Source: Arthrobacter sp. H5 | GTDB lineage: Bacteria > Actinomycetota > Actinomycetes > Actinomycetales > Micrococcaceae | Reading direction: 5' to 3' | DNA: 35,928 nucleotides | Assembly (NCBI RefSeq): GCF_000520595.1 | Contig: NZ_KI914991.1 | Coordinates: 34,010 to 69,937, forward strand | Program-made: the position numbers and the translations under genes | Notes under the pieces: model-generated | Told to the model about the DNA's origin: nothing | The model's input: the letters and a program-made list of their open reading frames with translations, nothing else | Database searches by the model: none | In this document: in pieces, positions 5,441 through 27,292 of the stretch | Layout: every line of letters begins with the position of its first letter | Position numbering within the stretch: the first letter of the stretch is position 1

Positions 5441-5470
5441 GCGTCCCGACAGGTTCACCTGCCGGGACGC
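5441..5470 (-). promoter_or_regulatory. Strong hairpin between the two DUF6112 genes
   Basis: GCGTCCCG (5441-5448) pairs perfectly with CGGGACGC (5463-5470). Inside, CAGG (5450-5453) pairs with CCTG (5458-5461) around a TTCA loop, with one A/C mismatch between the stems. That gives 12 pairs in a 30-nt structure. In the direction of transcription it lies about 20 nt past the stop codon of the 5492-5758 gene. No U-run follows, so it is more likely an attenuator, leaky terminator or mRNA-stability element than a full terminator. It may raise the level of the upstream pilin-like gene. Confidence 0.65.
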
Positions 5471-5491
5471 GCTCGATGACGACCAAGTGAG

Positions 5492-6936: not shown

Positions 6937-6948
6937 GAGTTGGTCTTC

Positions 6949-7632: not shown

Positions 7633-7665
7633 ATCGGGCAGGTGCGCAGCACCAGCCCGTCATCA

Positions 7666-8682
7666 TCAGATCGCGCGAAGGTTGCCTCTTGATGCTGATG
7701 AGTCGGAACCTGCATCGTCGGCATCGAGGCCACTTCGGAGTTGTTCGGCAAAGAGTGAAGTCGCGTCAACGACACGGAGGAACATCTCGACTTCTGTATC
7801 GCTTAGCTGGTGGACGAGGTCGTCGGCGTCAAAGTGCCGCCACCATCCATCGAGTTCATTCCACGTCACCACGAATGCCCGAACTGGCCACGGCTCGTCA
7901 CCGTCGATGTGCGCTGTTTTGGGGCTCGGCGAGGAACGACGCTTTTGAAACGGTTTGCTCTTGATACGTGCTAGTGCGGCCTCCGCCAACTGTGCCACGT
8001 CCTCTACCGGTGCGTCTGGCTGAGCCCCCGACACAAGCTGCCGTGCACGTTCGTAACTGGGATGCACGGGTGCGCCAGACCCAATGAGTTCAAGCTCAGC
8101 TGCGACACCCTCTCGTACCGACTCTGTCTGGTTCTCATCGTCAGCGAGTTGCTGCAGGTAGTTGATCTTCTCCAGCGTGGTGTGTGACGCGCCATCCGGG
8201 ATCATCGCGGCGGCCTGCGCACGGGAATCTCCGAGCGACTCTGACGGTGCCGCAAAATTTGCGTTACCGTCAGTTCCCGGTTGATTTTCGCGGCTGAACC
8301 GTGACGCTTCCTGACGGCGAGCGGCATCCTCAGCCATCAGCGTCTTGATCTCTCGATAGAGCGCGGCGCTCTCCAACTGGGTGAGCGGCTTGTGCAGCAC
8401 GTTGTCGTCCTGCTCGGCAAGGAGGTGCGCGAGATCCCCCGAGATGCCGGACCGCACCCAGACCTTGACGTGCTGCCATCCGAGCTGCTTTATCGCAGCC
8501 AATCGTCGCGCACCGCAGACCAGGATCCCGTCAGGGGTGACCGTGATCGGTTGCAGCAGGCCATCGCGCTCGATCGACGCGGAGAGCGATCCGAGGTCGC
8601 CGAGCCCAGTGCGGTGACGGCGTCCGACCTGGATCGAGCCGACTGCCCGGTCCAGCTCGATATGGCCGTCACGTGTACTCAT
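7666..8682 (-). CDS. ParB/Srx-domain protein
   Basis: 338 aa. The N-terminal ParB-type domain is clear: SLSASIERDGLLQPITVTPD followed by CGARRLAAIKQLGW (residues about 32-69), with GARR at 57-60 matching the GERR box of ParB proteins. A helical middle part (including LTQLESAALYREIKTLMAED) resembles the ParB helix-turn-helix region, and the C-terminal third is acidic. ATG 8682 overlaps the TGA of the upstream gene (ATGA). No ParA partner is visible in this window, so it may be a transfer or replication regulator rather than part of a partition pair. Its position before the T4SS genes is common in actinobacterial elements. Confidence 0.88.
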   Translation of the reverse strand: MSTRDGHIELDRAVGSIQVGRRHRTGLGDLGSLSASIERDGLLQPITVTPDGILVCGARRLAAIKQLGWQHVKVWVRSGISGDLAHLLAEQDDNVLHKPLTQLESAALYREIKTLMAEDAARRQEASRFSRENQPGTDGNANFAAPSESLGDSRAQAAAMIPDGASHTTLEKINYLQQLADDENQTESVREGVAAELELIGSGAPVHPSYERARQLVSGAQPDAPVEDVAQLAEAALARIKSKPFQKRRSSPSPKTAHIDGDEPWPVRAFVVTWNELDGWWRHFDADDLVHQLSDTEVEMFLRVVDATSLFAEQLRSGLDADDAGSDSSASRGNLRAI

Positions 8683-9536
8683 CGTGTGTTCCCATGACTG
8701 GGCGCCGACATCGCAACAACCATTACAAGGTCGTCGTCACCGAGGAGCGTCGGGAGTGTCTCGCCGACGAGTAGGCGGAGCAGGATGCCGCGACCGGTGC
8801 TTGTCGCCCGGTATGCAGGGTGCGGATGCCCAAGCAGCACGTGCAGAAGCGGCGACCAGGAGTCGGCGGGTAAGTCGAGAAGCGCGCGTGCGTGCTTGTC
8901 CCGGCGCAGCAGCTCGTAAGCGCTTTGCCGAGACCCGATTCGTGCCACCGCGCTGCACACATGTTCGATCGCTTCGCGGGCGGTGCTTTCGGGCCACCCT
9001 AAGGTCGTGAATAGGGTGATCGCGCGGTCGATCGCGCGTCGGGCTGTATCGGTGTCGAGCGTAGTGTTGGGGTCGTCGTCTTCAATGATGGGATACCGAT
9101 CGACGACGTGGAATGCCGGGTGATAGTCGGCCAGCGGATTTTCCCGGTCGGCAAAACGCTCAGGGTCGTGGAACGCAGATATGTGCGGGCGACGTGCTTG
9201 ATGCGTCGCACAGAGCAACCCCTGCCCGCGTTCCTCGGCGATGCAGGTCACCTGAACGCCACGGGTGACCACAGCCCAAGGATCAATGGCCTCGCGAGCG
9301 GATCGAGTCCTCATGACGTCGAATGCTGCCGACGCTGCCTCCCATGGATCGAGGCCATGCTTGCGAGCCAACGCCGCATATTTCTCCGCGGCGAAAGCTG
9401 CGAGTTCGGCAGCGACGCGGTCGTGCTCCCACGCGCGAGCACCTGCGTGGTGCAATCGATGAAGCAAGGCGCGAAGCCCCTCGCTCGTCGTGTAATCCTC
9501 ACGTGGTTGCCGGGTCGAGCTGTTGGTATCGATCAT
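8679..9536 (-). CDS. Conserved hypothetical protein upstream of parB-like gene
   Basis: 285 aa from ATG 9536, with GGAGG about 10 nt upstream; a TTG seven codons earlier (9557) overlaps that ribosome site and is less likely. The protein is soluble, Ala/Arg/Asp-rich and largely helical. It includes FAAEKYAALARKHGLDPWEA and a middle segment (AIDPWAVVTRGVQVTCIAEE) that looks like part of a DNA-binding or replication protein, but no diagnostic motif is present. The stop overlaps the ParB-like start (ATGA), so the two are coupled and probably work in the same process. Function is unknown; a replication or partition accessory role is only suggested by context. Confidence 0.8.
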   Translation of the reverse strand: MIDTNSSTRQPREDYTTSEGLRALLHRLHHAGARAWEHDRVAAELAAFAAEKYAALARKHGLDPWEAASAAFDVMRTRSAREAIDPWAVVTRGVQVTCIAEERGQGLLCATHQARRPHISAFHDPERFADRENPLADYHPAFHVVDRYPIIEDDDPNTTLDTDTARRAIDRAITLFTTLGWPESTAREAIEHVCSAVARIGSRQSAYELLRRDKHARALLDLPADSWSPLLHVLLGHPHPAYRATSTGRGILLRLLVGETLPTLLGDDDLVMVVAMSAPSHGNTR

Positions 9537-9629
9537 GGTGTCGGCACCTCCTGACAAGCAGGTGCGCGCCCGCTCCCTAGCGGGGTCCTGGATGTCAGCG
9601 AAGTGCCCATGAGATGCCGTGCCCGACGA

Positions 9630-10001
9630 TCAGGGTGTCCCGATCGCGCCTCGCTCGGCCCCTCGTCTGGAGCTGCCATGTCCGAACGCGGACAACGGGG
9701 GGAGGCGCCGGGCTCTCTCTGCAATGCCTCGGGCGCTGGTCGCGGTCGCCTGGTACGTGCGACGTCGAAGCTCGGCCTGGAAATTGATCCCTGCCCCGGC
9801 GACGCGCGAACCGCCGCGCGCCATCAGGTCAGTTGGCCGCACCCATTCAACTCCTCGGCCACGGTAGAACGCGGGATTGAATCCAGCGCTACTGCGTCCC
9901 CCTTGAACGCTCGCGGCCTCAACCGCTTCCGGAGTGCTCGCCATCTTCACGGAACTGTCACCGGCGACGACAGCCGCGTCATCCTTTTCCACTTCGCTCA
10001 T
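9630..10001 (-). CDS. Small hypothetical protein coupled to DUF2637 gene
   Basis: 123 aa. The N-terminal 35 residues are acidic and likely disordered; the rest is Arg/Gly-rich (RPTDLMARGGSRVAGAGINF, ELRRRTYQATATSA), with a very basic tail. No membrane segment or catalytic motif is visible. The ATG at 10001 overlaps the TGA of the DUF2637 gene (9998-10001), the same coupling used through this cluster, and this is the main support for the gene being real. A plus-strand frame overlaps it but has no such context. Possibly a nucleic-acid-binding accessory protein; unknown. Confidence 0.65.
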   Translation of the reverse strand: MSEVEKDDAAVVAGDSSVKMASTPEAVEAASVQGGRSSAGFNPAFYRGRGVEWVRPTDLMARGGSRVAGAGINFQAELRRRTYQATATSARGIAERARRLPPLSAFGHGSSRRGAERGAIGTP

Positions 10002-10612
10002 TTCGTTTCCTCCTCGTCTGGTGTTGCGGATGCGGGCTCAACGCCCGCCTGATCGAGCGGCTTGTTCGCGAACCAACGACCCACGGTTGAAGGGTGCACG
10101 CTCAGCTCACGCGCGATCCTCTTGTTCGACCAACCCTTCTCGCGCAAAGCCGGCGCGGCGTCTTGGGGCGAGGCCTGCGGCGTGGTCTTGCGAACGGCTT
10201 CGGGCAGCTCGGGAATGCGAATGAGGAGCACGGTGAGGTGAGTGATCGCCAGCAAGACCACCGGTGGAACCGCGGCAACTGCAGCCGCGAGAAAGCTCGG
10301 CACATCAGCATCCGCGGCGACCACGGCATGAATCGAATTGGCTGTTACTGACACGGCGGCAGCGCCAGCGAGCAGAGTCCAGGGGTACCAGGCTGCTCGG
10401 GCTCCAGCCAGCGCGACGACGGCGACCGTCGATACGACGATGACGCCGTCGACAATGAGCGGCCACGCCCATGCTTGCCCAGCACCAATCCCTGAACGGG
10501 CGGCAAGGTCTGCAAGCGAGGTGAATGATAGCCAGAAGGCTCCCGCGGCGATGAAGACGGTGCCCGCCACGGCCGTCATGACCGCCCATCGCCGCCCGTT
10601 GAAATCACTCAT
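9998..10612 (-). CDS. DUF2637 membrane protein with C-terminal HTH (SpdB-like)
   Basis: 204 aa. Four hydrophobic helices are visible in residues about 10-135 (for example AVMTAVAGTVFIAAGAFWLS, WPLIVDGVIVVSTVAVVALA and FLAAAVAAVPPVVLLAITHL). This is the DUF2637 pattern found in SpdB-type proteins of actinomycete conjugative elements. A C-terminal helix-turn-helix follows (ALREKGWSNKRIARELSVHP, then STVGRWF). Proteins of this type are linked to plasmid spreading in Streptomyces; here the HTH could tie DNA to the membrane. Both ends are coupled by ATGA overlaps, to the primase-polymerase upstream and the small protein downstream. Confidence 0.87.
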   Translation of the reverse strand: MSDFNGRRWAVMTAVAGTVFIAAGAFWLSFTSLADLAARSGIGAGQAWAWPLIVDGVIVVSTVAVVALAGARAAWYPWTLLAGAAAVSVTANSIHAVVAADADVPSFLAAAVAAVPPVVLLAITHLTVLLIRIPELPEAVRKTTPQASPQDAAPALREKGWSNKRIARELSVHPSTVGRWFANKPLDQAGVEPASATPDEEETK

Positions 10613-11532
10613 GCCAGTGCCCGTGAAGCTGAGGCGGGCGGCGGCCGATCACACGACGTTATGGGATGGGGTTGTGCCGACTGCTGCGGAGGTGCCCCCT
10701 GTACCGCTCGATATGCCGACCGGACGGTCGTAGCAGCTTCGCGCTGGCTGAGACCGGCCCGTTCGGCAGCCGCGCTGAGTGCATCGAGCGCGTCGCTGGT
10801 CGGCACCATCTGCTCGGCCATTTTGCAGGCGGCCCAGAATAGGCCGTGGTTGCGTTCGCCCTCCTGCCGTCGCGCGACCCTATCGGCCAGTCGTTGCACA
10901 TCAACGGGACGATCGCTCGATCGCACGTTCTGACGACACTCGGTGGGTCGCGGCGGATCGAGATGGTTACGCAGCTTCTGCGAATCAAGTGGACGACCGG
11001 GTTCACCAGCCAACTGGAGAATCTCGTATCGGCGCGTCTGCCCGTCGAAGGTGCGCACAGACGGCGGCACGATGACATAGCCGCCGTCACCACGGAAGTC
11101 GATTCCAGTTCGTGCGGATTGCCATGAGCGCTGCTCGCTATTCCTGTCCGCCGGGAAGAAGAGATGGAGCCCTCCGGATGGAGTCCTGACTGCTGCTTCC
11201 CAGCCCTCAAGTAGTCCGGCGCGCCGGGCACCATCGAGTCCGTCGTACCCGTTGACGGAGCCGTGCACATCGACGTCAACCACGACAAGACCCGAGGGAG
11301 TGCCGGTCGGCATTCCGATATTTGCTAAAGGCATCGCTGCCCACCAGCGGCGAACCCATTCGGGATCGTTGCTTGCCGTATGAAACCCTCCCGCAACGGC
11401 GGGGCGCTTCCCGCCCGCGGTACAGGGAAACACCGGGATGCCGGAAACTGCGAAGGCGAGCGCGCTTTGACCGAGAGACATCCCGAGACCAACGCGATCG
11501 AGTGTCGTCACGAACGCTTTCGGCGCGTTCAT
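10609..11532 (-). CDS. Bifunctional DNA primase/polymerase (AEP, PrimPol)
   Basis: 307 aa. The archaeo-eukaryotic primase-type fold is marked by ALAFAVSGIPVFPCTAGGKR near the N-terminus, the metal-binding VVDVDVHG (D86, D88), and VRTPSGGLHLFFPA, which contains the catalytic His region. A helical C-terminal tail (including FWAACKMAEQMVPTSDALDA) resembles the small accessory domain often found after PrimPol in mobile elements. It would prime DNA synthesis in replication of the element or second-strand synthesis after transfer. ATG 11532 has GAGGG 5 nt upstream and overlaps the ArdC-like stop (ATGA). The downstream DUF2637 gene is also coupled. Confidence 0.92.
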   Translation of the reverse strand: MNAPKAFVTTLDRVGLGMSLGQSALAFAVSGIPVFPCTAGGKRPAVAGGFHTASNDPEWVRRWWAAMPLANIGMPTGTPSGLVVVDVDVHGSVNGYDGLDGARRAGLLEGWEAAVRTPSGGLHLFFPADRNSEQRSWQSARTGIDFRGDGGYVIVPPSVRTFDGQTRRYEILQLAGEPGRPLDSQKLRNHLDPPRPTECRQNVRSSDRPVDVQRLADRVARRQEGERNHGLFWAACKMAEQMVPTSDALDALSAAAERAGLSQREAATTVRSAYRAVQGAPPQQSAQPHPITSCDRPPPASASRALA

Positions 11533-12620
11533 CGCAGCCCTCGCACGTCTGCCAACGCCACCTGTGGTGAGGCCGCGGCGGCAATGGGTGCGGGTGAGGC
11601 GCCCGCGCGTTCGACTGCCTGGGAGCTGTGACGAGTCGATCCCCGTTCAAGCCCCGGAGGTGTGCCGTCACCGATCATTTGCGTATCGAGCTGATCGAGA
11701 ATCTTCACCGCAGTCCCGCGGACCCGCTCGCCCGTTGCCCGAACGATCTTCGACGGTTCCTCGCCATCGACTTGTGCCGCCCACGTCGACACGTAGGGGA
11801 TCGTGTACCCGGTGGTATCTATCCCGTGCCCCGCGCCGACCATGAGCGCTACGGACTCGGCCTCGACTTCGCCGATGCCGCGGTGCTGACGTGCGTCTCC
11901 CTGATCAGGGCCGTGCATGAGGACGTGCGCGAGTTCGTGAACCAGCGTCTTCACTTGGGCGGCCGGGTCCATGTTCTCGCGGACGCTGACTGTCTTCTCC
12001 GCATAGTCGGTGACGCCGTTGGCGCCAAAGATCAAGCCCGCGTGAGCCACGCCATGCACCTGGAATCCGGCAGCTTCGATCTGTTGAATAACTCCATCCC
12101 GGAGCCCCGAGGGAGCCTCGCCCTGCAGCAGCTTCGGCGTCGGCGGTGCCGGGATCGGATCTCCCGCGGTCTGCGCGGCATCCCAGACGTACGCGGGGCG
12201 GACGCCGACCATCTTCGATCGAGCTTGCTCGCCGGGGCGAGGCTTCTCTGATTGGTTGAGTCGTCGCCACGATGCCGGATCAGATGGCGTAGGGGAGGCG
12301 AAGCGGCCAGTAACCGGAGCAAGAATTTGATAGCCCGGCTGTCCCTTCTCTACCTGGCGCCCGAGCAGCTGCCACTGCTTGTACCCGGCCACGTACGAAG
12401 GGATCGGATCCGGCACCAGGCCCGCCTCATAGGCTGCGGTGTGCTGCATCCAGATCAGCAGCGTGTTGTTGAATGAACGACTGCGGAACCGGGCGGCGAA
12501 AGCGAGTGCGTTGGCCCAGTCTTCTCCAGACACCAGCTGATCGACAGCCTCGGTCAGCTTCTCGTGCAACTCATCGAGCTTTGCCTCCCGCGCTATGCGG
12601 CGATCGTCTATCGACGCCAT
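11529..12620 (-). CDS. ardC: ArdC-like antirestriction protein with zincin domain
   Basis: 363 aa. The N-terminal ArdC single-strand DNA-binding domain is recognisable (KLTEAVDQLVSGEDWANALA, RSFNNTLLIWMQ, VAGYKQWQLLGRQV, KGQPGYQILAPV). The C-terminal half is a zinc metallopeptidase with VHELAHVLMHG (ligands H228 and H232, catalytic E229) and EVEAESVALM downstream for the third ligand. ArdC-type proteins protect incoming plasmid DNA from host restriction during conjugation. ATG 12620 has GAGGAGG 7 nt upstream and the family-typical N-terminus begins there. A frame from ATG 12797 with a good AGGGGAGG site would add 59 Arg/Ser/Pro-rich residues; it may instead be a leader peptide region. It is the first gene of the minus-strand cluster. 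Confidence 0.88.
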   Translation of the reverse strand: MASIDDRRIAREAKLDELHEKLTEAVDQLVSGEDWANALAFAARFRSRSFNNTLLIWMQHTAAYEAGLVPDPIPSYVAGYKQWQLLGRQVEKGQPGYQILAPVTGRFASPTPSDPASWRRLNQSEKPRPGEQARSKMVGVRPAYVWDAAQTAGDPIPAPPTPKLLQGEAPSGLRDGVIQQIEAAGFQVHGVAHAGLIFGANGVTDYAEKTVSVRENMDPAAQVKTLVHELAHVLMHGPDQGDARQHRGIGEVEAESVALMVGAGHGIDTTGYTIPYVSTWAAQVDGEEPSKIVRATGERVRGTAVKILDQLDTQMIGDGTPPGLERGSTRHSSQAVERAGASPAPIAAAASPQVALADVRGLR

Positions 12621-12845
12621 TGGTTGGCCTCCTCTCTGATGCGCCACGTCGCGGAAGCGTGTGGCGATACACCTTTCAGGTGAGCGAGGATGCCCAAGTC
12701 GGGGTGACAGGGAAGGGCAGACTCGCCGGGATCTCAGGAGCGTGCTGCGATCACGCGCGACTGAGTGCACGAGCATCATCGCCTCGAAGGTGGGCATGCT
12801 CCACCTCCCCTTGAGCAGCAGTGCGTTCGTGCCACATCACGAATG

Positions 12846-12859
12846 TTGAGCATGCTCAA
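12846..12859. promoter_or_regulatory. Operator O1, perfect 14-bp palindrome
   Basis: The sequence TTGAGCATGCTCAA is a perfect palindrome. It is the best match to the consensus TTG-A/T-GCATG-A/C-N-CAA shared by four sites in 12846-12948. It lies about 10-25 bp downstream of the predicted minus-strand start, so a bound repressor could block transcription of the ArdC/transfer operon. Confidence 0.75.
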
Positions 12860-12875: not shown

Positions 12876-12904
12876 GTTCTAACATGGCTGTTGAGCATGC
12901 GCAA
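12876..12904 (-). promoter_or_regulatory. Candidate promoter for the ArdC/transfer operon
   Basis: On the minus strand TTGCGC (12904-12899) is followed by exactly 17 nt and then TAGAAC (12881-12876). The -10 box is weak in its last base. The -35 box lies inside operator O2, as expected for a repressed promoter. The predicted start is near 12869, leaving a long leader before the ArdC start at 12620. Confidence 0.5.
12891..12904. promoter_or_regulatory. Operator O2
   Basis: TTGAGCATGCGCAA differs from the perfect palindrome O1 at one position. It covers the -35 box of the minus-strand promoter. Its centre is 45 bp from that of O1. Confidence 0.72.
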
Positions 12905-12907
12905 CCC

Positions 12908-12936
12908 TTGATTTGTGCATGATCAACGGTTATATT
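12908..12936 (+). promoter_or_regulatory. SigA-type promoter of the XRE/ImmA cassette
   Basis: TTGATT at 12908-12913 is followed by a 17-bp spacer and TATATT at 12931-12936, a good housekeeping-sigma promoter on the plus strand. Operator O3 (12913-12926) fills the spacer and O4 (12935-12948) covers the end of the -10 box and the start site near 12943. The first gene starts at 13008, giving a leader of about 65 nt. The overlap with operators predicts repression, probably by the encoded XRE protein. Confidence 0.75.
12913..12926. promoter_or_regulatory. Operator O3
   Basis: TTGTGCATGATCAA matches the shared 14-bp consensus and sits between the -35 and -10 boxes of the plus-strand promoter. Its centre is 22 bp from O2 and from O4, about two helical turns, which would favour cooperative binding on one face of the DNA. 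Confidence 0.68.
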
Positions 12937-12948
12937 GAGCATGCACAA
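12935..12948. promoter_or_regulatory. Operator O4
   Basis: TTGAGCATGCACAA overlaps the last two bases of the -10 box and the predicted start of the plus-strand transcript. Occupancy here would block the regulator's own promoter. Confidence 0.72.
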
Positions 12949-13007: not shown

Positions 13008-13436
13008 GTGACCGAGGACGAGAGCAAAACCGCAGCTGCGGATCTCGCGAAACGCCTGCGGCTGTTGCTTGACGTTGTGATCACCGAGTCCGGTGTTGAA
13101 CCGACGTATTCGCAGATCGCCGCCTACCTGGGCGAACGCGGCACCAATCTGTCGAGATCGCGGTGGACCTACATGGTGAACGGCCACCGGTACGTACAGG
13201 ACACCGAGGTGTTCGAGGGGCTGGCAGCGTTTTTTGACGTTGACGCTGACTTCCTCACGGGTACGGATGGGGCCGCGGTTCCGGCACGAGTGAGCGCACA
13301 GCTTGACCTTGTGCGCTCGATGCGAGCGGCGAAGGTTAAGTCCTACGCAGCTCGTACCCTTGGAGACATTTCACCGAAAGCTCTCCAAGCCATCAGCAAG
13401 TTCCTAGATGAAGAAATGGCGCGCACAACCGAGTAG
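13008..13436 (+). CDS. EspR-like XRE-family transcriptional regulator
   Basis: 142 aa from GTG 13008, which follows GGAAGGGAG by 7 nt; the longer frame from 12960 would put its start beside the promoter and operators and lacks a ribosome site. A helix-turn-helix lies in the first half (TYSQIAAYLGERGTNLSRSR, WTYMVNGHR), followed by a segment like that after XRE domains (VFEGLAAFFDVDADFLTG) and a helical C-terminus probably used for dimerisation. The pattern resembles EspR-type actinobacterial regulators. It most likely binds the 14-bp palindromes in 12846-12948 and controls both divergent operons, including itself. The next gene encodes an ImmA/IrrE-type peptidase, a classic partner that inactivates XRE repressors. 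Confidence 0.85.
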   Translation: MTEDESKTAAADLAKRLRLLLDVVITESGVEPTYSQIAAYLGERGTNLSRSRWTYMVNGHRYVQDTEVFEGLAAFFDVDADFLTGTDGAAVPARVSAQLDLVRSMRAAKVKSYAARTLGDISPKALQAISKFLDEEMARTTE

Positions 13437-13489
13437 TGACGGTGCGGAGCATACGCAGGTAGATGCGCTCGAAGGAGGGTGAGCACAGC

Positions 13490-13954
13490 GTGAATATCGA
13501 ACTGACCGTGACAACGGCCGTCGCGGATCTTGCTCTGGGCGGCATCTTTACCTTCGACGATCTCTTCGACGCTGTGCGGGAGCGCCGACAACGAAGGCTC
13601 CGTGTCGTGGAGCTTGCCGATCTCGGCGACCACGATGGCATCTGCGCTGTCTGGCTGATTACCGATGCTGAGGATTTCATCCTCCATGCCCACAGCGACT
13701 CGGTTCTGCATCGCCAGCAGTTCGTTCTGCATGAGTTCGCTCACATGATTCTCGGGCACTGCGACGGCGACGAGTGCTCAGAGGTGGATGCCCTCCTGCC
13801 TGATATCCCACCGCACACCCGGGGTCGCTTGCTTAGGCGCCAGGATCTCGATTCTGACACCGAGGTCGCTGCGGAATCATTGGCGGACCGACTCGCGGCG
13901 GGAATCCGCGGGTCGGCCTTCGCGGAGTCTCGCTACTCGGAGATATTCGCATGA
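13490..13954 (+). CDS. ImmA/IrrE-type metallopeptidase
   Basis: 154 aa from GTG 13490, with AAGGAGG about 11 nt upstream; ATG 13463 in the same frame (nine codons longer) is an alternative but would place that site inside the gene. The zinc motif is clear: FVLHEFAHMILGH with HEFAH at 81-85, and EVAAESLADRLA downstream to supply the third ligand. Before it, ICAVWLITDAEDFILHAH matches the beta-strand region of ImmA/IrrE proteases. These enzymes cut a cognate XRE repressor in response to a signal and thereby induce mobile elements (ImmA/ImmR of ICEBs1). The gene follows the XRE gene by 53 nt and overlaps the next gene by 4 nt, so the repressor is the likely substrate. Confidence 0.88.
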   Translation: MNIELTVTTAVADLALGGIFTFDDLFDAVRERRQRRLRVVELADLGDHDGICAVWLITDAEDFILHAHSDSVLHRQQFVLHEFAHMILGHCDGDECSEVDALLPDIPPHTRGRLLRRQDLDSDTEVAAESLADRLAAGIRGSAFAESRYSEIFA

Positions 13955-14967
13955 TCCAGACGTTCGTCGCGGCACTCATGTGGGTTCTTGTGGCGGGCCT
14001 GCTCATTCTGCGGCGCGGGCGAACGGATCGCAGCATCACGTACGCTGCGCTGACCATAGCTATCGCCATGACACTTAACGTGGATGCGATCTACGTCATC
14101 GTCGATCGGGTGCTTGGTGCAACAAACCTGGCCACGCTGCTCTCAGATGGCCTCTTGATGATCGGCCTCTTCTTTCTCGGCCGGGCAACAATGAAAGCTG
14201 GGGAGTATCGCCCTCGGTTGGTGCGCGCAGCTGTCGGTCGCTCCGCACTGTTCATCGCGCTCCTCTGCGCCGCAGTGGCCTTCATGCTGACCGACCGAGG
14301 GCCAACGACGGTCAACTTCATGATCGATCTCGGCGACCAACCGTGGGCCGCGGCGTATTCCATCATCGTCTTCACCTACTGCGGGATCATCGTTGCAGCG
14401 ATGCTCACGCTGGCGACACGCCAGCTCAGGCTTGGGAAGGGCATCCAGCGCATTCCGCCAGCGCTGTTGTTGATCGGCTCGGCTTCGGGCGTTGCACTCT
14501 GCGTAGTGGTGATCGTTATGGATGTTGCCCACATCTCGGGCAACCTCGAACTCATGGACGCGTTCGGTGCAGCGTATGGGGCGCTTTCTCTGCTCGCGTT
14601 TGTCTTTCTGTGCGCTGGATTCGCAGGGCAACCGGTGGCCCGATACGTGCGGGATCATGCCCGGCGCGTGCAGACAGATGAGATGGTGAAGGAGCTGGAA
14701 CCGCTCTGGCGTCGGGCAACGCTCTTGCGGCCGGGACTCAGTGGAACGAACTCGCTCGGGTTGAGCATGGATGACCCAGAGGGACGCCTCCACCGCGAGA
14801 TCGTCGAGATCCGTGACGCCATGATCGATCCACGCGTCTCCTTCGAAGTCACTGGCACCGAACGCGCATTGCTGGAGCGAGCCGAGGAGCATCTGCTCGG
14901 GACCGGGGCGCGCGGCACACCTGAACCTGTCCCTGATCACCCTGCACACGGACAAGGGCACCCATGA
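13951..14967 (+). CDS. MAB_1171c-like seven-helix membrane protein
   Basis: 338 aa. Seven hydrophobic helices can be traced in residues 1-235 (for example TFVAALMWVLVAGLLIL, LATLLSDGLLMIGLFFLG, SALFIALLCAAVAFML, AYSIIVFTYCGIIVAAML and GALSLLAFVFLCAGF). A cytoplasmic C-terminal domain includes ELEPLWRRATLLRPG and RLHREIVEIRDAMIDPRVSF. This matches actinobacterial proteins called MAB_1171c family putative transporters, which carry a DUF6545-type tail. Real transport has not been shown as far as I know; a receptor role is equally plausible beside an ImmA-type protease. ATG 13951 overlaps the protease stop (ATGA), and the stop overlaps the hydrolase start. Confident on topology, less on family name, unsure on function. 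Confidence 0.8.
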   Translation: MIQTFVAALMWVLVAGLLILRRGRTDRSITYAALTIAIAMTLNVDAIYVIVDRVLGATNLATLLSDGLLMIGLFFLGRATMKAGEYRPRLVRAAVGRSALFIALLCAAVAFMLTDRGPTTVNFMIDLGDQPWAAAYSIIVFTYCGIIVAAMLTLATRQLRLGKGIQRIPPALLLIGSASGVALCVVVIVMDVAHISGNLELMDAFGAAYGALSLLAFVFLCAGFAGQPVARYVRDHARRVQTDEMVKELEPLWRRATLLRPGLSGTNSLGLSMDDPEGRLHREIVEIRDAMIDPRVSFEVTGTERALLERAEEHLLGTGARGTPEPVPDHPAHGQGHP

Positions 14968-16121
14968 AGCGCATCATCGCCGCAGGCGCGACGCTGCTCA
15001 CCGCGGGAGGCCTGGGTCTCGGATGGACTATTGCCCGGAGGTTGACTGCACCGGTAGGCCCACGGGACTTTGACCTGACCATCCGCGACATGGAGGTTGA
15101 TGGAGATCGGCGGTTACTGATCCTCGACCGCACACGTGAGACTGCCGCGCGTGGTGTTTACAACCTGTGGTTCGAGACGGGCGACTGGGTGCGAGTGTCC
15201 GACGAAGTGCTCGATCGAGGCTCTAGCCAGATCGCTCGGGTTGTGACGGATGCGATGCACGACTTCCTGCCTTCCGCTGGAGACCGCTTTTCGTGGAGCG
15301 GGATCTACTTCGCAAACCCAGCCGATGCAGGCCTCAGCGCCAGGGAGATCTCGATCAACACACCTGCTGGCGCAGCTTCGGCATGGCTCATTCAGGGAGA
15401 TGAAGACCGTTCGACCTGGGCGATCCACATCCACGGACTGGGCAGTAACCGGCGCGGAACCTTGCGCGGTGTGCAGGTTGCCGCTGAGGTGGGCTACACA
15501 TCGCTCGTCATCAGCTACCGCAATGACGGCGAAGGCCCCCGACTTGGCAACGAGCGCTCGACGCTTGGCGTCGCGGAGCGCGAGGATGCCGAAGCCGCAG
15601 TGGACTTCGCGGTCCAGCACGGAGCGCAGCGGATCGTGTTGTTCGGATGGTCGATGGGTGCCGCGATTGCGCTACAAGTAGCCAGCCGCGCACGAGAGCG
15701 CAGTGTGATCGTGGGACTTGTCTTGGACTCTCCGGTTCTCAACTGGATCGACGTGATCAAAGCGAACTGCGCACGCAGCGGTTTGCCTGCAGTAGCAGGT
15801 CATCTCGCGACCCCGTGGCTGACGCTTGACCCGCTCGCTCGCATGGTCGGGCTGACGGGCGCTGTCCCGCTTCGGGAGCTTGATTGGGTGCAGCGCGCCG
15901 CAGAATTTACGGTGCCCACGCTGATCATCCATGGGACCCGAGACGACTCCGCCCCGATATGGGGCTCACAAGCGCTACATGACCTTCGCCCCGACCTGGT
16001 GGAACTCGCGGCCTTCGAAGCTGGCCACACGCTGTCATGGAACTCCGACCCCAAGCGTTGGCGATCCACTGTCGCCACATGGCTCTCGGCACGTGTCGGC
16101 CCTGGTGACAACGGAGGCTAA
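14964..16121 (+). CDS. Membrane-anchored alpha/beta hydrolase
   Basis: 385 aa. An N-terminal hydrophobic helix (residues 3-24, RIIAAGATLLTAGGLGLGWT) should anchor it with the catalytic domain outside. The domain has HIHGLGSN (oxyanion region, 155-162), the nucleophile elbow GWSMGA with Ser230, HGTRDDSAP with Asp327/328, and EAGHTLSW with His355, so the triad is complete. It resembles the serine aminopeptidase S33 group of alpha/beta hydrolases. It overlaps the seven-helix protein gene by 4 nt and ends the cassette. An outward-facing esterase or peptidase next to a membrane receptor-like protein could make or destroy a small signal, but the substrate is unknown. No terminator is obvious in the 124 nt that follow. 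Confidence 0.85.
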   Translation: MKRIIAAGATLLTAGGLGLGWTIARRLTAPVGPRDFDLTIRDMEVDGDRRLLILDRTRETAARGVYNLWFETGDWVRVSDEVLDRGSSQIARVVTDAMHDFLPSAGDRFSWSGIYFANPADAGLSAREISINTPAGAASAWLIQGDEDRSTWAIHIHGLGSNRRGTLRGVQVAAEVGYTSLVISYRNDGEGPRLGNERSTLGVAEREDAEAAVDFAVQHGAQRIVLFGWSMGAAIALQVASRARERSVIVGLVLDSPVLNWIDVIKANCARSGLPAVAGHLATPWLTLDPLARMVGLTGAVPLRELDWVQRAAEFTVPTLIIHGTRDDSAPIWGSQALHDLRPDLVELAAFEAGHTLSWNSDPKRWRSTVATWLSARVGPGDNGG

Positions 16122-16245
16122 CTTCCCACCGCGCGATGGGGTCTCGCGAGTTCGCCTGATCACGCCCGCATAAACCCGGCTCAAAAGGCACAACTCCGGT
16201 ATCATCGGGAACGTTGACCCACCCGGGTTGAGATGGAGAACTCCC

Positions 16246-16443
16246 GTGACTGAGTCGTGGCTGTCAGCTGATGACATCGCAGTCCATCTCGGCGTGACCA
16301 AGGACACCGTCTACACGTGGATCGCCGACAAAGGCATGCCCGCGCACAAGATCGGCCGCCTCTGGAAGTTCCAGGCGAGCGAGGTCGACGACTGGGTTCG
16401 AGGTGGCGGTGCCGCCGCACCAGGCGGTCCCGATACCGACTGA
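16246..16443 (+). CDS. Excisionase-type (MerR-like) HTH protein upstream of BREX
   Basis: 65 aa from GTG 16246, with GGAG 7 nt upstream; a TTG at 16228 would include that site and is less likely. The whole protein is one winged HTH: SWLSADDIAVHLGVTKDTVY, then TWIADKGMPAHKIGRLWKF and SEVDDWVR, the standard pattern of helix_turn_helix_17/excisionase-family proteins. Small proteins of this kind are often the first gene of actinobacterial restriction and BREX-like operons. Here it lies 88 nt before brxA, so it may regulate the BREX operon, perhaps through the palindrome at 16465-16486. An Xis role in excision of the element is the main alternative, but no integrase is visible. Confidence 0.88.
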   Translation: MTESWLSADDIAVHLGVTKDTVYTWIADKGMPAHKIGRLWKFQASEVDDWVRGGGAAAPGGPDTD

Positions 16444-16531: not shown

Positions 16532-17158
16532 TTGACAATGAGTACCGACGCGCAAGATCGCTACGCGCTGTCTTTCACCAGCGGTGGTCTCCTGGCTCGT
16601 GAGGCCGATGTGGTCGCGTCAGTGTACTTGCGTGAGCGCGACTGGGTGGCAGTTCGGCGTATCGTCACGGAGGGCAACCTACTTCAGGCACGGACCTCCT
16701 CGTCCAGCGTGCGCGTGACGCGCGAGACGGTCCAGCGGATCAGCGTCTTGGATGACGCGGAGCTGGAACTCCTCGTCGAGTCGAGTCTGACCGAGCGGTG
16801 CCACCTGATGTGGGTGGCAGCGTGCCGCCGGTACGAGTTGATCGGAGACTTCGCGGAGGAAGTGCTCCGCGAACGCTTCCTGCTGCTCACCCCGACGCTC
16901 AGCATCGACGACTTTGATCGGTTCCTCACCGGCAAGAGTCTCTGGCATCCCGAACTCGACGAGTTGAAGGCAACCACTCGTATCAGGTTGCGTCAGAACC
17001 TGTTCCGAATGCTCTACGAGGCCGGATTGTGCAGCGAGGACGGTGCCATCGTTCCGGCTGTGCTCTCCGAGCGCATCGTCGAGCGGCTCGCAGCTCGCAC
17101 CCCGAGTGACATTCGATTCCTTCCGACCGATCTGCAGACCGAGGCGAGCGCGCGATGA
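16532..17158 (+). CDS. brxA: BREX-1 protein BrxA (DUF1819)
   Basis: 208 aa, the usual BrxA length. Family-typical stretches include YALSFTSGGLLAREADVVAS near the N-terminus, ESSLTERCHLMWVAACRRYE in the middle, and TTRIRLRQNLFRMLYEAGL near the C-terminus. BrxA is a small DNA-binding protein of type 1 BREX, which blocks phage DNA replication while marking host DNA by methylation. GGAAGGAGG lies 5 nt before TTG 16532 and 11 nt before ATG 16538, so either could be the start; the second removes only two residues. The stop overlaps the brxB start by 4 nt (ATGA). First gene of the core operon. Confidence 0.95.
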   Translation: MTMSTDAQDRYALSFTSGGLLAREADVVASVYLRERDWVAVRRIVTEGNLLQARTSSSSVRVTRETVQRISVLDDAELELLVESSLTERCHLMWVAACRRYELIGDFAEEVLRERFLLLTPTLSIDDFDRFLTGKSLWHPELDELKATTRIRLRQNLFRMLYEAGLCSEDGAIVPAVLSERIVERLAARTPSDIRFLPTDLQTEASAR

Positions 17159-17766
17159 AGATCACAGCTGAGCGAAATCTCCACACAGAAGAGGGCCATG
17201 TCTACGAGGTGCTGCGCAGCCAGCGTTTCCTCAACATGGAGGGTCTTTCCAAGGAAGTGCCGTTCTTCATCTACCACTACCCGCCGAGCTGGGCGGTAGA
17301 CGTGGAGGCCACCCGTGACCGCGTGATCACCAAGCTCCGCAGTGACGATGGTCTCACTGTCGTCGACATCAACCTGTACGACCTTGCCATCAAGCTACTG
17401 ACCGACCGTGGAGTGTGGGATCGGATCCTGGAGTTGGAGCCCACGCAGGATAAGTATGAATTCCGCGAAACCCTCCAAGGGATGCTCGATCCGCACGACC
17501 ACCTCGCGCCCGTGATCCGTGAACAGTTGGCCAAAGACCCGAGCGACATGGTCTTCCTCACCGGCATCGGTGAGGTCTTTCCCTTTGTTCGCACCCACAC
17601 GGTGCTGGAGAACTTGCAAAGCGTCGTGGTCGGAAGGCCGATGCTCGCGTGGTTCCCGGGAACGTACGAGTTCACCCAGGCACGCGGTCACCAGCTCCGC
17701 GCGCTCAACCTCAGTGCCAGCGATAGCTACTACCGCGCCAAAGACATTTTGGAACAGGAAGCATGA
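17155..17766 (+). CDS. brxB: BREX-1 protein BrxB (DUF1788)
   Basis: 203 aa, normal for BrxB. DUF1788 hallmarks are visible: VPFFIYHYPPSWAVDVE near residue 40, then MVFLTGIGEVFPFVRTHTVL and PMLAWFPGTYEF toward the C-terminus. BrxB is an essential core BREX component thought to work with BrxC and the PglX/PglZ pair. ATG 17155 overlaps the brxA stop and its own stop overlaps the brxC start (both ATGA), so brxA, brxB and brxC are translationally coupled. No truncation or odd residue was noticed. Confidence 0.95.
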   Translation: MKITAERNLHTEEGHVYEVLRSQRFLNMEGLSKEVPFFIYHYPPSWAVDVEATRDRVITKLRSDDGLTVVDINLYDLAIKLLTDRGVWDRILELEPTQDKYEFRETLQGMLDPHDHLAPVIREQLAKDPSDMVFLTGIGEVFPFVRTHTVLENLQSVVVGRPMLAWFPGTYEFTQARGHQLRALNLSASDSYYRAKDILEQEA

Positions 17767-20700
17767 CGATGACCCAGATCAACGAGATCTTCGCTAAGAA
17801 CATCCAGCGTCCGATCGAGGGCGTCATCAAGGCGGATGACACGTCCCAGCTCGGCGTCGAGGTCGAAGAATACGTTCTCACCAACGAGGCCGCCAAAGGC
17901 GTCGAGCAGGTCCTTGAGGCGTACACGAACTACACCAACGCCAACGGAGTGTGGATCTCAGGCTTCTTCGGCTCGGGCAAGTCGCACCTCCTCAAGATGC
18001 TCGCCCACCTCCTGGGTGACATCGAGGGGCACGACTACCCGCGCAGCAAAGTTTCGGAGCACTTCCGCGACAAGGCAAACGACGCGTTCCTCCCCGCGTT
18101 GATCGCTCGGTCTGACAGCATTGCGGCCAGAAGCCTGCTGTTCAACATTGATCAGAAGGCGACGCTGATCAGCAAGGATCAGAACGACGCCCTGCTAAAG
18201 GTCTTCGTCAAAATCTTCGACGAATCGCGCGGCTACTACGGCAACCAGGGCCACATCGCTCGTTTTGAGCGCGACCTCGATGGCCGCGGACAGTACGACG
18301 CGTTCAAGGGTGCGTTCGAACGTCTCGCGGGTATTCCCTGGTCGCAAGGCCGTGAACAGAGCGCGCTTGAAGCGGGCAACATTGACAAGGCATTCGCTGA
18401 AGTCAACGGCAGTGCGAGCCCCGGCATCATCCGCCAGTACAGCGCGTCGTACTCGGTCTCGATCGAAGACTTCGCGGACGAGGTGGCCGGGTGGCTCGCC
18501 GATCAGCCTGAGGGGTTCCGGCTCAACTTCTTCGTTGATGAGGCTGGCCAGTTCATCGGCTCGAACACACAGCTGATGCTGAACCTGCAGACCATTGCTG
18601 AGTCTCTGGCCACGAAGTGCAAAGGCCGCTCGTGGATTTTCGTGACCTCCCAGGAGGACATGGAGAAGGTCGGCGGCGACCGCACCAAGGCACAGGCGAA
18701 TGATTTCTCCAAGATCCAGGCACGCTTCGCGAACCGGGTCAAGCTCACCAGCCAAGACGTCGAAGAGGTCATTCGCAAGCGCCTGCTCGCCAAGAATGAA
18801 GCGGGCGCAGCCGAGGTCGCCGAGATCTACGCTGCAGAGCACGCGAACTTCAAGACACTGTTCGACTTCGTCGATGGCGGCCGCTACCCGAACTACCGCG
18901 ACGAAGAACACTTCGTCGGCGCATACCCATTCGTGAGCTACCAGTTCCCGCTTTTTCAATCCGCGATCGAGGGCATCAGCGACCACAACATCTTCGAAGG
19001 CCGCAACAGCTCAGTCGGTGAGCGGTCCATGCTCGGCGTCGTGCAGGAGGTCGCGAGCGCCCTGACCGATAAGCCGCTGGGGCAGCTTGCGTCGTTCGAC
19101 CAGATGTTTGCGGGCATCCGGGCATCGCTGAAGTCGGCGAACCAGCGCGCGATCTTGAACGCCGAAAGCAGCGGCAAGCTCAGCGAACTCGCGATCCGAC
19201 TGCTCAAAGCCCTATTCCTCGTGAAATACGTCGAGGGCTTCAAAGCGACGCCCCGCAACCTCACTGTGCTGGTCTACGACCGCTTCGGAACCGATCTGAC
19301 TACTTTGTCGAAAGACGTGATCGAAGCGCTAGCTGCGCTGGAGGCGCAGACCTACATTCAGCGCAACGGTGACGTGTATGACTATCTCACCAACGAAGAG
19401 CAGAAGATCGAGCAGGAGATCAAGAACGTCGACATCGACTCGTCCGAGGTGTCGAAGAAGCTCTCTGACCTGCTCACTCAGTCCGTCGTGAAGCTCACGA
19501 AGGTGGTGTACGCCAAGAACGGCCAGACCTTCCCGATCGGGTACAAGCTCGATGGCCAGTCGATGAGCAAGCAGTACGAGCTGGCGTTGCACTTCACGAG
19601 CCCCGACACGGAGTTCAGCCTGGAGCAGATCAAGGCACACAGCGCCGGGCTCGACGAGTTGCGGGTCGTCCTCCCGGGCGACAGCGAACGAATCCTCGCA
19701 GACTTGCGCCTCCAGCTGAAGACTGAGAAATACGTCAAACGCGCACACGGCAGCAGTCGCACGGCGATCGAGCAGACGATTTTGCAGGCCAAAGGTACCC
19801 AGAACGCGGAGCGCGAGAAGGAGATCGTCGAACGCCTCCGCGGCGCCGTCGGCCGCGCTACCCTCGTTCACAATGCCGGGGTGATCGACGTGTCGGCAGC
19901 TGATCCGGTGAGCCGGATCAGCATTGGTTTCGAGCGGGTGATCGCTGCGACGTACACGAACCTTGCGCTGCTGGGCGGCAAGACGTTCGGCGAGCAGCAG
20001 CTCTCATCGTTGGTCAATCCACCTGACGGCGGCCTCGTCGACGAAGTGGCGAGCGTGCTCACCGTGCCCGGCGATGATGTGCTCGGCCACCTCGAGATGC
20101 GCGGCAAGCGCCACGAGCAGGTCACGATGAAGCATCTGCTGGAGAAGTACACGATCAAGCCGTACGGCTGGGACCAGTGGTCGGTCGCCGCGGTCGTCGC
20201 CTACCTCGCGGGTGTATCCAAGATTGAGCTCGCCCTAAACGGCAAGCTACTTAAGCGCACCGAGATCACCGGCGCACTGCGCAACACGCAGAGCTACCCG
20301 AATATGGTTATTGCCCCGCAGAGGGTGTTCGACCAGAAGACGATCTCTGCGTTCCGCAAGTTCACTGTCGAGTTCACCGACGAGGGAGCGATCTCGAAGG
20401 ACCCGCTGGAGCTTGCTCGTACCGGCAAGGAACTCCTCGACAAGAAACTCGTCGAACTTAAGGGACTCGCCATGGGGTCGCGCTATCCCTCCATCGACCA
20501 GCTTGACGAACCGGTCAAGTTGCTCACTGAACTATGCAACCACCCGGCCGAATGGTTCATCACCGAGTTCTCGGGACTCGACGAACTGCTTGAGCTCAAG
20601 GACAGTGTGATTGACCCGATCAAGCAATTCCTCAACGGTGCCCAGCGAGGAATCTACGACAACGCCGCGGCGTTTATGCAGGCGAACCAGTCGAACATCA

Positions 20701-21281
20701 GCTACCTGCCCACAGGAGCGACAGATGCTGTCGCGCTACTGCTCGAAGACCCAAACGTCTTCCGCGGCGCCAAGATCAACCAACTCGGCACCGCCGTGTC
20801 CGCGATCGAAGATCAGATCGCCACTGTCATTGATCACCAGCGAGCAGAGGCGGTCGCCGAGATCAACGCCCGCTGGCAGCAAGTTCCCGCCAGCAGGGCG
20901 TTCTTGGACGCGTCCGACGCTGCGCAGCGATCGGTCACAAGCAAGGCGCAGGGCCTGCTCGCCCGTGTGCAAAGCGAGGCTCAAATTCCGGTGATTCGGA
21001 ACATCGCTGCCACATTCGCCGATACGACCTATCCCGAGATTTTCGACGAGCTCGTCGCCGCAGCACCTGCACCGGACCTACCAGCAGATCCTGGCCCGGA
21101 CGCGGAGGGCGAGCTCGCAACCAATGTCCTCCCGGTGAAGCAGGCTGTCGCGTTCAAGCGCCTAGCGCTGCCGGGAGCCGGTGAAGTATTGGAGGACGCC
21201 GACGACGTCGAACGGTATCTTGACCGGCTCCGCGAGACACTTCTCGCCACGATCAACGACAACAAGCGCATCACGCTCTAG
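17763..21281 (+). CDS. brxC: BREX-1 protein BrxC, large P-loop ATPase
   Basis: 1172 aa, about the family's usual 1200. The N-terminal ATPase has Walker A GFFGSGKSH (residues 68-76) and Walker B LNFFVDEAGQF (about 254-264). SWIFVTSQEDMEKVGG near residue 292 fits a sensor region. A long helical C-terminal part follows with several charged coiled-coil stretches (for example around 680-700 and 1010-1060). BrxC belongs to the DUF6079-type ATPases and is required for both methylation and phage restriction in type 1 BREX. ATG 17763 overlaps the brxB stop by 4 nt. pglX begins 9 nt after its stop. The frame is intact throughout. Confidence 0.95.
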   Translation: MTMTQINEIFAKNIQRPIEGVIKADDTSQLGVEVEEYVLTNEAAKGVEQVLEAYTNYTNANGVWISGFFGSGKSHLLKMLAHLLGDIEGHDYPRSKVSEHFRDKANDAFLPALIARSDSIAARSLLFNIDQKATLISKDQNDALLKVFVKIFDESRGYYGNQGHIARFERDLDGRGQYDAFKGAFERLAGIPWSQGREQSALEAGNIDKAFAEVNGSASPGIIRQYSASYSVSIEDFADEVAGWLADQPEGFRLNFFVDEAGQFIGSNTQLMLNLQTIAESLATKCKGRSWIFVTSQEDMEKVGGDRTKAQANDFSKIQARFANRVKLTSQDVEEVIRKRLLAKNEAGAAEVAEIYAAEHANFKTLFDFVDGGRYPNYRDEEHFVGAYPFVSYQFPLFQSAIEGISDHNIFEGRNSSVGERSMLGVVQEVASALTDKPLGQLASFDQMFAGIRASLKSANQRAILNAESSGKLSELAIRLLKALFLVKYVEGFKATPRNLTVLVYDRFGTDLTTLSKDVIEALAALEAQTYIQRNGDVYDYLTNEEQKIEQEIKNVDIDSSEVSKKLSDLLTQSVVKLTKVVYAKNGQTFPIGYKLDGQSMSKQYELALHFTSPDTEFSLEQIKAHSAGLDELRVVLPGDSERILADLRLQLKTEKYVKRAHGSSRTAIEQTILQAKGTQNAEREKEIVERLRGAVGRATLVHNAGVIDVSAADPVSRISIGFERVIAATYTNLALLGGKTFGEQQLSSLVNPPDGGLVDEVASVLTVPGDDVLGHLEMRGKRHEQVTMKHLLEKYTIKPYGWDQWSVAAVVAYLAGVSKIELALNGKLLKRTEITGALRNTQSYPNMVIAPQRVFDQKTISAFRKFTVEFTDEGAISKDPLELARTGKELLDKKLVELKGLAMGSRYPSIDQLDEPVKLLTELCNHPAEWFITEFSGLDELLELKDSVIDPIKQFLNGAQRGIYDNAAAFMQANQSNISYLPTGATDAVALLLEDPNVFRGAKINQLGTAVSAIEDQIATVIDHQRAEAVAEINARWQQVPASRAFLDASDAAQRSVTSKAQGLLARVQSEAQIPVIRNIAATFADTTYPEIFDELVAAAPAPDLPADPGPDAEGELATNVLPVKQAVAFKRLALPGAGEVLEDADDVERYLDRLRETLLATINDNKRITL

Positions 21282-21290
21282 GAGACGCAT

Positions 21291-27283: not shown

Positions 27284-27292
27284 GGACAGCTG

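What the first reader, a model, noticed from the sequence alone, without database searches (positions are those of the whole stretch)
13008..16121. Repressor / ImmA protease / seven-helix protein / anchored hydrolase cassette: possible signal-sensing system
An EspR-like XRE regulator is followed by an ImmA/IrrE-type protease, a MAB_1171c-like membrane protein and an outward-facing alpha/beta hydrolase with an intact triad. The last three genes overlap by 4 nt. In ICEBs1, ImmR/ImmA respond to signals to induce transfer. Here a membrane receptor-like protein and an enzyme are added, which suggests extracellular signal making or removal coupled to repressor cleavage. I know of no described system with this exact set.
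Basis: partly seen in the sequence, partly recalled or inferred. Interest (0 to 1): 0.62.

Follow-up and report, generated by a model that had tools for sequence, protein, structure and literature searches.

The report
Conserved four-gene switch on mobile DNA
Next to a phage-defence island on mobile DNA of an actinobacterium sits a four-gene control unit (repressor, protease, receptor-like membrane protein, enzyme) that is kept together on many mobile elements of related bacteria and probably lets the element decide, from a chemical cue, when to move.

Summary
The four genes are real and lie where stated. They are not a local accident: of 80 related loci, 78 carry the membrane protein and the protease and 77 the repressor too, in one order, between a conjugation backbone and variable, often defence, cargo (here type I BREX). 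The element looks like an ICE in tRNA-Pro. Upstream of the repressor lies a conserved array of palindromes (TTGAGCATGCTCAA, about 45/22/22 nt apart) interleaved with its promoter: four sites in 59 of 76 loci, three in 15. In some groups of close elements protease, 7-TM protein and hydrolase are far more diverged than repressor and flanks. Class-wide, 'MAB_1171c transporter' genes have an HExxH protease nearby in 39 of 40 loci examined and an EspR-like repressor in 36, with differing enzymes following (PAP2-like, P450, amidase, amidohydrolase). Best reading: an ImmR/ImmA-like repressor-protease switch gated by a 7-TM sensor, with a linked enzyme acting on its ligand. Cleavage, ligand and enzyme activity are inferred. 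'Outward-facing' is not established. The hydrolase also has a stand-alone chromosomal relative, which forms a separate group.

The parts
12846..12859 (.). operator 1, TTGAGCATGCTCAA (perfect palindrome), on the side of the divergent transfer operon
   Evidence: conserved array in relatives
12891..12904 (.). operator 2, TTGAGCATGCGCAA
12913..12926 (.). operator 3, TTGTGCATGATCAA (one mismatch to TTGNGCATGCNCAA), within the promoter
12935..12948 (.). operator 4, TTGAGCATGCACAA, touching the -10
12908..12936 (+). promoter-like site TTGATT-17-TATATT of the cassette, overlapped by operators 3 and 4
   Evidence: 1 found, 0.1 expected in shuffles; TTGatT and TA..tT in the consensus of 71 loci
13008..13436 (+). 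EspR-like XRE repressor
13463..13954 (+). ImmA/IrrE (M78)-type metalloprotease, HEFAH; probable start GTG 13490
13951..14967 (+). seven-helix DUF6545/MAB_1171c-like membrane protein, N-out/C-in by the positive-inside rule, long cytoplasmic helix after TM7
14964..16121 (+). alpha/beta hydrolase with N-terminal hydrophobic anchor, HxHG 155-158, S230, D327, H355
11529..12797 (-). divergent first gene of the left-hand (transfer/replication) operon: ArdC-N + M78 domain
   Evidence: found in 60 of 80 loci
5032..11532 (-). conserved ICE backbone: Prim-Pol 10609-11532, ParB-like 7666-8682, M23 peptidase 5758-6936, DUF6112 5032-5433
16228..16443 (+). MAD1/excisionase-type HTH between cassette and cargo
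   Evidence: in 39 of 80 loci
16532..29455 (+). cargo: type I BREX brxA, brxB, brxC, pglX, pglZ, brxL
30634..34191 (+). TrwC (MOBF) relaxase of the element

Best explanation
The cassette is the master switch of an integrative and conjugative element. The EspR-like XRE protein binds four palindromic operators in the divergent promoter region, repressing its own operon and the leftward transfer/replication operon (supported by sequence). The M78 protease, made in translational coupling with the 7-TM protein, inactivates the repressor by cleavage, as ImmA does to ImmR (inferred from family). The 7-TM DUF6545 protein is a sensor whose cytoplasmic part activates or restrains the protease (inferred from topology, class-wide linkage and shared allelic variation). 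The hydrolase makes, matures or destroys the small ligand that the sensor reads, so the element can tell whether like elements or recipients are near (inferred from the enzyme slot being filled by different small-molecule enzymes elsewhere and from allelic variation). Rough confidence per step: operator binding 0.9, cleavage 0.75, gating by the 7-TM protein 0.65, ligand-linked enzyme 0.45.
For: Four genes in one order in 77 of 80 loci and together on plasmids. Operator array: four sites in 59, three in 15, one in 1, none in 1 of 76 loci; only 7 further sites, all at two mismatches, in 1.2 Mb of the same loci; three exact sites in the host genome, all here. Distant cassettes have their own CATG-centred palindrome near the protease start in 10 of 12, against 91 of 2120 random windows, these taken from other loci. 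Class-wide: protease within 3 kb in 39 of 40, within 120 nt on the same strand in 35, XRE in 36. Enzyme slot elsewhere: of 25 genes following a DUF6545 gene that I scanned, 8 are PAP2-like, 2 amidohydrolases, 2 amidases, 2 P450s. Allelic block: L109/L104 dS 0.06-0.26 in backbone genes and 0.11 in XRE against 0.91/0.78/0.97 in protease/7-TM/hydrolase; three pairs with cargo 94-97%, MAD1 97%, XRE 93-97% yet 7-TM 78% and hydrolase 81-83%. In a 21-element clade XRE is one allele cluster, protease 6, 7-TM 5, hydrolase 11. 7-TM positive-inside pattern and model. M78 fold.
Against: No step after DNA binding is shown, and binding itself rests on sequence. Block divergence is not general: among 11 hand-made clusters it is plain in some and absent in others, the window's own nearest relatives included (median dS 0.29/0.23/0.38 against 0.11-0.35 in the other genes); in the 28 pairs with cargo and backbone both at 85% or more the block averages 97-98%. 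In the L152 group the XRE is equally diverged, and given the backbone, XRE and protease co-vary most (0.71), protease and 7-TM 0.65, 7-TM and hydrolase 0.48, a graded pattern that linkage alone could give. The hydrolase has a widespread stand-alone chromosomal relative beside zapE, msrB and sulfurtransferase genes, so it may do a household reaction. Of the 25 scanned following genes 6 have no family and 5 are DUF4192, and 16 of the 40 class-wide loci have no following gene by my criterion. PAP2 matches are over Pfam's cut-off in 2 of 8. The 7-TM model resembles GPCRs/rhodopsins only in common topology (Foldseek E at best 0.07; Z 12.6, within the range the tool gives for helical models). Hydrolase orientation is unresolved.
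Confidence: 0.5

Rival explanations
1. The pair XRE/protease is an intracellular DNA-damage switch like PprI-DdrO or CapP-CapH, in which ssDNA activates the protease. The 7-TM protein only anchors the protease and the hydrolase is an accessory household-type enzyme.
For: Closest folds of the protease are CapP and IrrE/PprI; for both, ssDNA-triggered cleavage is reported (passages of PMC10904395); ICEBs1 is also induced through RecA (passages of PMC6540685).
Against: A 7-TM gene overlaps the protease gene by 4 nt in 74 of 78 loci and accompanies it class-wide, and it varies allelically in some groups, which an internal DNA-damage trigger does not explain.
Confidence: 0.2
2. The cassette is the regulator of the defence cargo (here BREX), as CapH/CapP is of CBASS operons.
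For: It lies directly upstream of MAD1 and BREX on the same strand; 8 of 9 cargo representatives scanned match defence models; CapP is the nearest fold.
Against: The operators sit in the divergent ArdC/XRE promoter region, with none at up to 1 mismatch elsewhere in 1.2 Mb. In some loci the largest downstream gene is not a defence gene (EAL protein in L101, heavy-metal ATPase in L144). MAD1, present in 39 of 80 loci, is a nearer candidate regulator of the cargo.
Confidence: 0.12
3. The 7-TM protein and hydrolase act on the cell envelope as an exclusion or mating-competition function of the element and are merely co-regulated with the repressor/protease pair.
For: Membrane location and allelic variation resemble exclusion genes (recalled); the family's chromosomal relative is a stand-alone, probably household hydrolase.
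Against: The same 7-TM family is linked to protease and XRE class-wide, with other enzymes in the fourth place; whether those loci are mobile was not tested.
Confidence: 0.12

Closest known systems
ImmR/ImmA (with RapI-PhrI) of ICEBs1
   Same: XRE repressor next to a COG2856/M78 protease, controlling an ICE's transfer promoter; there ImmA cleaves ImmR and RapI-PhrI sets ImmA activity (passages of PMC6540685)
   Different: EspR-like repressor; a 7-TM membrane protein and an enzyme instead of RapI and a peptide signal. The cassette leaves little room for a peptide gene (26-nt gap and 4-nt overlaps), but no search for very small ORFs was made
CapH/CapP and DdrO/PprI (IrrE)
   Same: repressor plus M78 protease; CapP is the closest fold to our protease
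   Different: those answer to ssDNA (passages of PMC10904395); no membrane sensor or enzyme (recalled)
MAB_1171c family 'putative transporter' (NF042915) / DUF6545 (PF20182)
   Same: the third gene; E 3.2e-27 to the profile
   Different: named a transporter; one paper in the library mentions it (knock-out with about half the biofilm; passages of PMC8707978). The linkage to XRE and protease found here speaks for a sensor
BlaR1-BlaI (recalled)
   Same: membrane sensor, metalloprotease and repressor in one chain of control
   Different: sensor and protease are one M56 protein there; separate and of other families here
COG2856-Xre pairs described as mobile stress or toxin-antitoxin modules
   Same: the first two genes (passages of PMC2701414)
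   Different: that survey set aside three pairs of a membrane protein with Xre as not toxin-antitoxin; here the membrane protein is part of a fixed set

Membership tests
ImmR/ImmA-type repressor-protease switch | XRE repressor gene next to an M78/ImmA protease gene | tested here: met
   in 77 of 80 loci
ImmR/ImmA-type repressor-protease switch | repressor operators in the divergent promoter of the transfer genes | tested here: met
   sequence level only: operator array
ImmR/ImmA-type repressor-protease switch | protease cleaves the repressor | not testable with these tools
   needs biochemistry
ImmR/ImmA-type repressor-protease switch | RapI-PhrI-like cytoplasmic receptor and peptide | not tested
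   no systematic search for Rap/RRNPP genes in the element was made; none turned up among the ORFs scanned
M78 (ImmA/IrrE) peptidases | HExxH helix followed by a glutamate ligand, IrrE-like fold | tested here: met
   Foldseek alone gave nothing significant (best is PprI, E 0.19) and Pfam PF06114 did not hit
DUF6545 (PF20182) | curated Pfam score | tested here: met
   27.3 against 24.4 bits
MAB_1171c family (NF042915) | curated NCBIfam score | tested here: not met
   95.5 against 100 bits; a near relative, not filed as a member
EspR | sequence similarity over most of the length | tested here: met
   3r1f, profile positions 15-141, E 1.6e-13; EspR's own cellular role is not implied
T4SS-type ICE | integrase at a tRNA gene, coupling protein, relaxase | tested here: met
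   tRNA-Pro, tyrosine integrase and TraG/VirD4 in L060, TrwC at 30634-34191
T4SS-type ICE | VirB4 ATPase | tested here: inconclusive
   not identified among the ORFs scanned; not all ORFs of the element were scanned
T4SS-type ICE | excision and transfer | not testable with these tools
   the window ends at the contig end; att repeats were not searched
type I BREX | brxA, brxB, brxC, pglX, pglZ, brxL | tested here: met

The most novel reading that the evidence does not exclude
MAB_1171c/DUF6545 proteins are a class-wide actinobacterial receptor family that reports a small molecule by switching an M78 protease, and modules carry their own enzyme (hydrolase, PAP2-like, P450, amidase, amidohydrolase) to make or clear the ligand. 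In these ICEs the protease-receptor-enzyme block exists in exchangeable alleles over a constant repressor and operator, that is, as 'pherotypes' by which mobile elements tell self from non-self.
Probability: 0.3. Interest if true: 0.85.

Novelty: new variant of a known kind. Interest (0 to 1): 0.63.

Why it matters
If right, it gives a function to a large family now called transporters, adds a receptor-to-protease route to the ways bacteria sense chemicals, and names the switch that moves defence islands between actinobacterial genera. The ordered operator array and the natural allele pairs make it directly testable by reporter and conditioned-medium experiments.

Tried and rejected
Chance association: rejected. 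Hitch-hiking of the variable block with cargo swaps: considered because divergence rises towards the cargo; three pairs with conserved flanks on both sides speak against it as the sole cause, but it is not excluded in general. Shared operator class-wide: CATG palindromes at the trio in other families are at background (4 of 99 test windows, 91 of 2120 control windows), so that operator type goes with the hydrolase-type cassettes. Foldseek for the 7-TM protein and for the protease gave no significant match; a fold absent from such lists is not excluded. PDB sequence search for the protease and the 7-TM protein gave nothing usable. Literature: nine searches of an open-licence library; I saw their listings (at most 20 titles each) and passages of six of the papers, and found no description of the set there. 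Subscription papers and bioRxiv preprints are not held. Phage collection: one hydrolase match (35%) in a 4 kb unannotated record, not followed.

Rows dropped and limits: one search found 177 hydrolase relatives and kept the best 80; the other 97 were not seen. Pairwise analyses used the 50 of 81 elements with all ten genes. The clusters are seven (the largest cut from 21 to 10 members) and four that I added by eye. Class-wide, 40 places were picked by hand from the matches for diversity; five following genes there were not scanned. Of 53 plasmid records with the hydrolase 12 were examined, picked by hand, two of them found through DUF6545. Profiles were iterated on the ORFs they then scored, so their E-values are optimistic. 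Cargo was judged from the largest downstream ORF of 75 loci, of which nine representatives were scanned for defence models. Gene calls in scripts come from a home-made GC3 caller. Backbone genes were not put through the allele clustering; site entropies of the three that were measured were lower (0.09-0.18 against 0.29-0.36 for the block, same call).
Full report
What is there. The four ORFs of the finding are intact and close-packed (details in the observation check). They stand between two parts of what looks like one mobile element. To the left, on the minus strand, runs a backbone of ArdC-M78, Prim-Pol, a ParB-like protein, an M23 peptidase and DUF6112. Further left, in the same contig, are a TraG/VirD4 coupling protein and a tyrosine integrase beside tRNA-Pro. 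To the right come a MAD1-type HTH gene, the six genes of type I BREX and a TrwC relaxase. The host genome has 4.33 Mb in 104 contigs.

Conservation of the set. A scan of named records with the hydrolase alignment gave 177 relatives, of which the best 80 were kept. In these, DUF6545 is found in 78, the protease in 78 and the XRE gene in 77. L102 and L155 begin inside the hydrolase gene; L129 lacks the XRE gene. In the 77 the order is XRE, protease, 7-TM, hydrolase. The Prim-Pol of the backbone is present in 72 and MAD1 in 39 of 80. Titles name Micrococcales, Propionibacteriaceae and Actinomyces hosts. Of nine cargo representatives scanned, eight match defence models: an HKD+SNF2 protein, DISARM drmA, Druantia druE, type I and type IIG restriction enzymes and an HmaC-like protein; BREX proteins recur in several loci. 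In other loci the largest downstream gene is something else, such as an EAL protein or a heavy-metal ATPase. The cassette therefore goes with the element rather than with one cargo.

Farther relatives. Ten loci of the same family of bacteria at about 30-40% identity (L042-L051) carry protease, 7-TM, hydrolase and XRE in permuted orders; the XRE of L044 is shortened. Some lie by conjugation genes (TrwC relaxase in L042, M23 peptidase in L045 and L047). Plasmids carry the set too. Of 53 plasmid records with the hydrolase I examined 12. All 11 actinobacterial ones, pAO1 and pTC1 among them, have XRE and an HExxH protease, 10 have a detectable DUF6545-like protein and the eleventh an unassigned ORF in its place; the Deinococcus plasmid has the hydrolase alone.

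The hydrolase outside the set. In the order, 110 of 198 genomes have a match at E 1e-20 or better. Of the 30 loci fetched, 27 have neither protease, 7-TM nor XRE within the 1.5 kb or less held on each side, and 9 of 10 wider stretches (11 kb) likewise. Shared neighbours in those wider stretches are zapE, msrB and a sulfurtransferase. A tree of 66 rows puts the 32 chromosomal proteins on one side of a branch (100/99) and the 34 cassette proteins on the other; it is unrooted, and two plasmid rows have long branches. The cassette hydrolases are thus separate from the stand-alone ones sampled.

Operators. Palindromes TTGAGCATGCTCAA and near copies lie at 12846, 12891, 12913 and 12935. The host genome has three exact TTGAGCATGCNCAAC sites, all here. 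Of 76 loci with enough upstream sequence, 59 have four sites, 15 three, one one and one none; L143 has only variants such as TTGGACATGTTCAA. Usual spacing is 43-47, 22 and 22-23 nt. In 1.2 Mb outside the region there are 7 further sites at two mismatches and none closer. The promoter TTGATT-17-TATATT is overlapped by operators 3 and 4, which fits autorepression together with control of the divergent operon; no leftward promoter was recognised by the scan. Ten of 12 distant cassettes have another palindrome with a CATG centre near the protease start: CTGGACATGTCCAG, CGGAACATGTTCCG or TGAAACATGTTTCA; L045 and L048 have none. In random windows of other loci such palindromes occur in 91 of 2120.

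The proteins. XRE is related to EspR. The protease keeps HExxH in 78 of 78 aligned sequences, and its model (mean pLDDT 80) is nearest to CapP and IrrE/PprI. The third protein shows seven hydrophobic segments and alternating positive loops that place the N-terminus out and the C-terminus in; its model (pLDDT 82) has one helix, residues 199-259, running from TM7 far into the cytoplasm. Structural hits are mostly GPCRs and rhodopsins, without significance. The hydrolase keeps its triad. Its anchor could lie either way.

Class-wide linkage. MAB_1171c-family proteins occur in 86 of 394 genomes of the class, over the cut-off in 55. Around 40 places picked for diversity, an HExxH protease lies within 3 kb in 39, within 120 nt on the same strand in 35, and an EspR-like XRE in 36. 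Of 25 following genes that I scanned, 8 are PAP2-like (L190, L191, L200, L201, L202, L210, L057, L065; two over Pfam's cut-off), 2 amidohydrolases (L181, L182), 2 amidases (L192, L194), 2 P450s (L195, L196), 5 DUF4192 and 6 without a family. L207 has two 7-TM genes in a row, then an FAD oxidoreductase. Sixteen of the 40 loci have no following gene by my criterion.

Allelic variation. In a clade of 21 elements with similar backbones the XRE falls into one cluster at 92% identity, the protease into 6, the 7-TM protein into 5 and the hydrolase into 11. For L109/L104 synonymous distance jumps from 0.11 in XRE to 0.91, 0.78 and 0.97, with a sharp edge just after XRE. In L115/L113, L133/L140 and L135/L140 both flanks are conserved (cargo 94-97%, MAD1 97%) while 7-TM and hydrolase stand at 78 and 81-83%. 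Against this, in the 28 pairs with cargo and backbone both at 85% or more the block averages 97-98%. One of the three proteins has the highest dN of the 8-10 genes compared in 10 of 11 clusters, but the jump in dS is confined to some clusters and absent around the window's own element. I read this as exchange of a specificity block over a constant repressor and operator. It is suggestive, not proof.

How it most likely works. By analogy with ImmR/ImmA (passages), the repressor holds the element silent and the protease removes it. The 7-TM protein is the natural input to the protease: overlapping genes, class-wide linkage and shared variation. The enzyme, differing in kind between families, is most simply the maker or remover of the ligand. 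Nothing here shows cleavage, a ligand or its direction of action.

Novelty. The parts of the switch are of known kinds. The combination with a 7-TM sensor and an enzyme, its class-wide spread and the constant-operator/variable-sensor pattern did not appear in the listings of nine searches of an open-licence library, which lacks most subscription papers.

Noticed in passing
window 11529-12797 (-): The divergent gene joins an ArdC N-domain to a second M78-like peptidase domain (PF06114 21.6 bits, just under cut-off 22), so the element carries two different M78-like proteins facing each other across the operators.
   Followed up: no
window 16228-16443 and 39 of 80 related loci: A MAD1-type HTH gene, highly conserved (median 90% pairwise), sits just after the cassette and before differing defence systems; it may be a common regulator of swapped-in cargo.
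   Followed up: partly
L052:6770-7610: A decayed remnant of the cassette: pieces of protease, 7-TM and hydrolase at about 37-92% identity in several frames.
   Followed up: no
L261 (pTC1), about 4565-6740: The 7-TM gene region of the pTC1 cassette appears to be interrupted by an ISAau1 insertion.
   Followed up: no
L043:10300-10884: A second EspR-like XRE gene lies just downstream of this cassette, closer to the window's XRE than the cassette's own copy (46% against 40%).
   Followed up: no
MT839701.1 (phage collection), 1438-2478: A 4 kb unannotated 'bacteriophage' record from human faeces encodes a 35% relative of the hydrolase; perhaps a misfiled mobile element.
   Followed up: no
L053, L054, L056, L061, L064: In five loci of the host's bacterial family a DUF4192 gene follows the DUF6545 gene; meaning unknown.
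   Followed up: no
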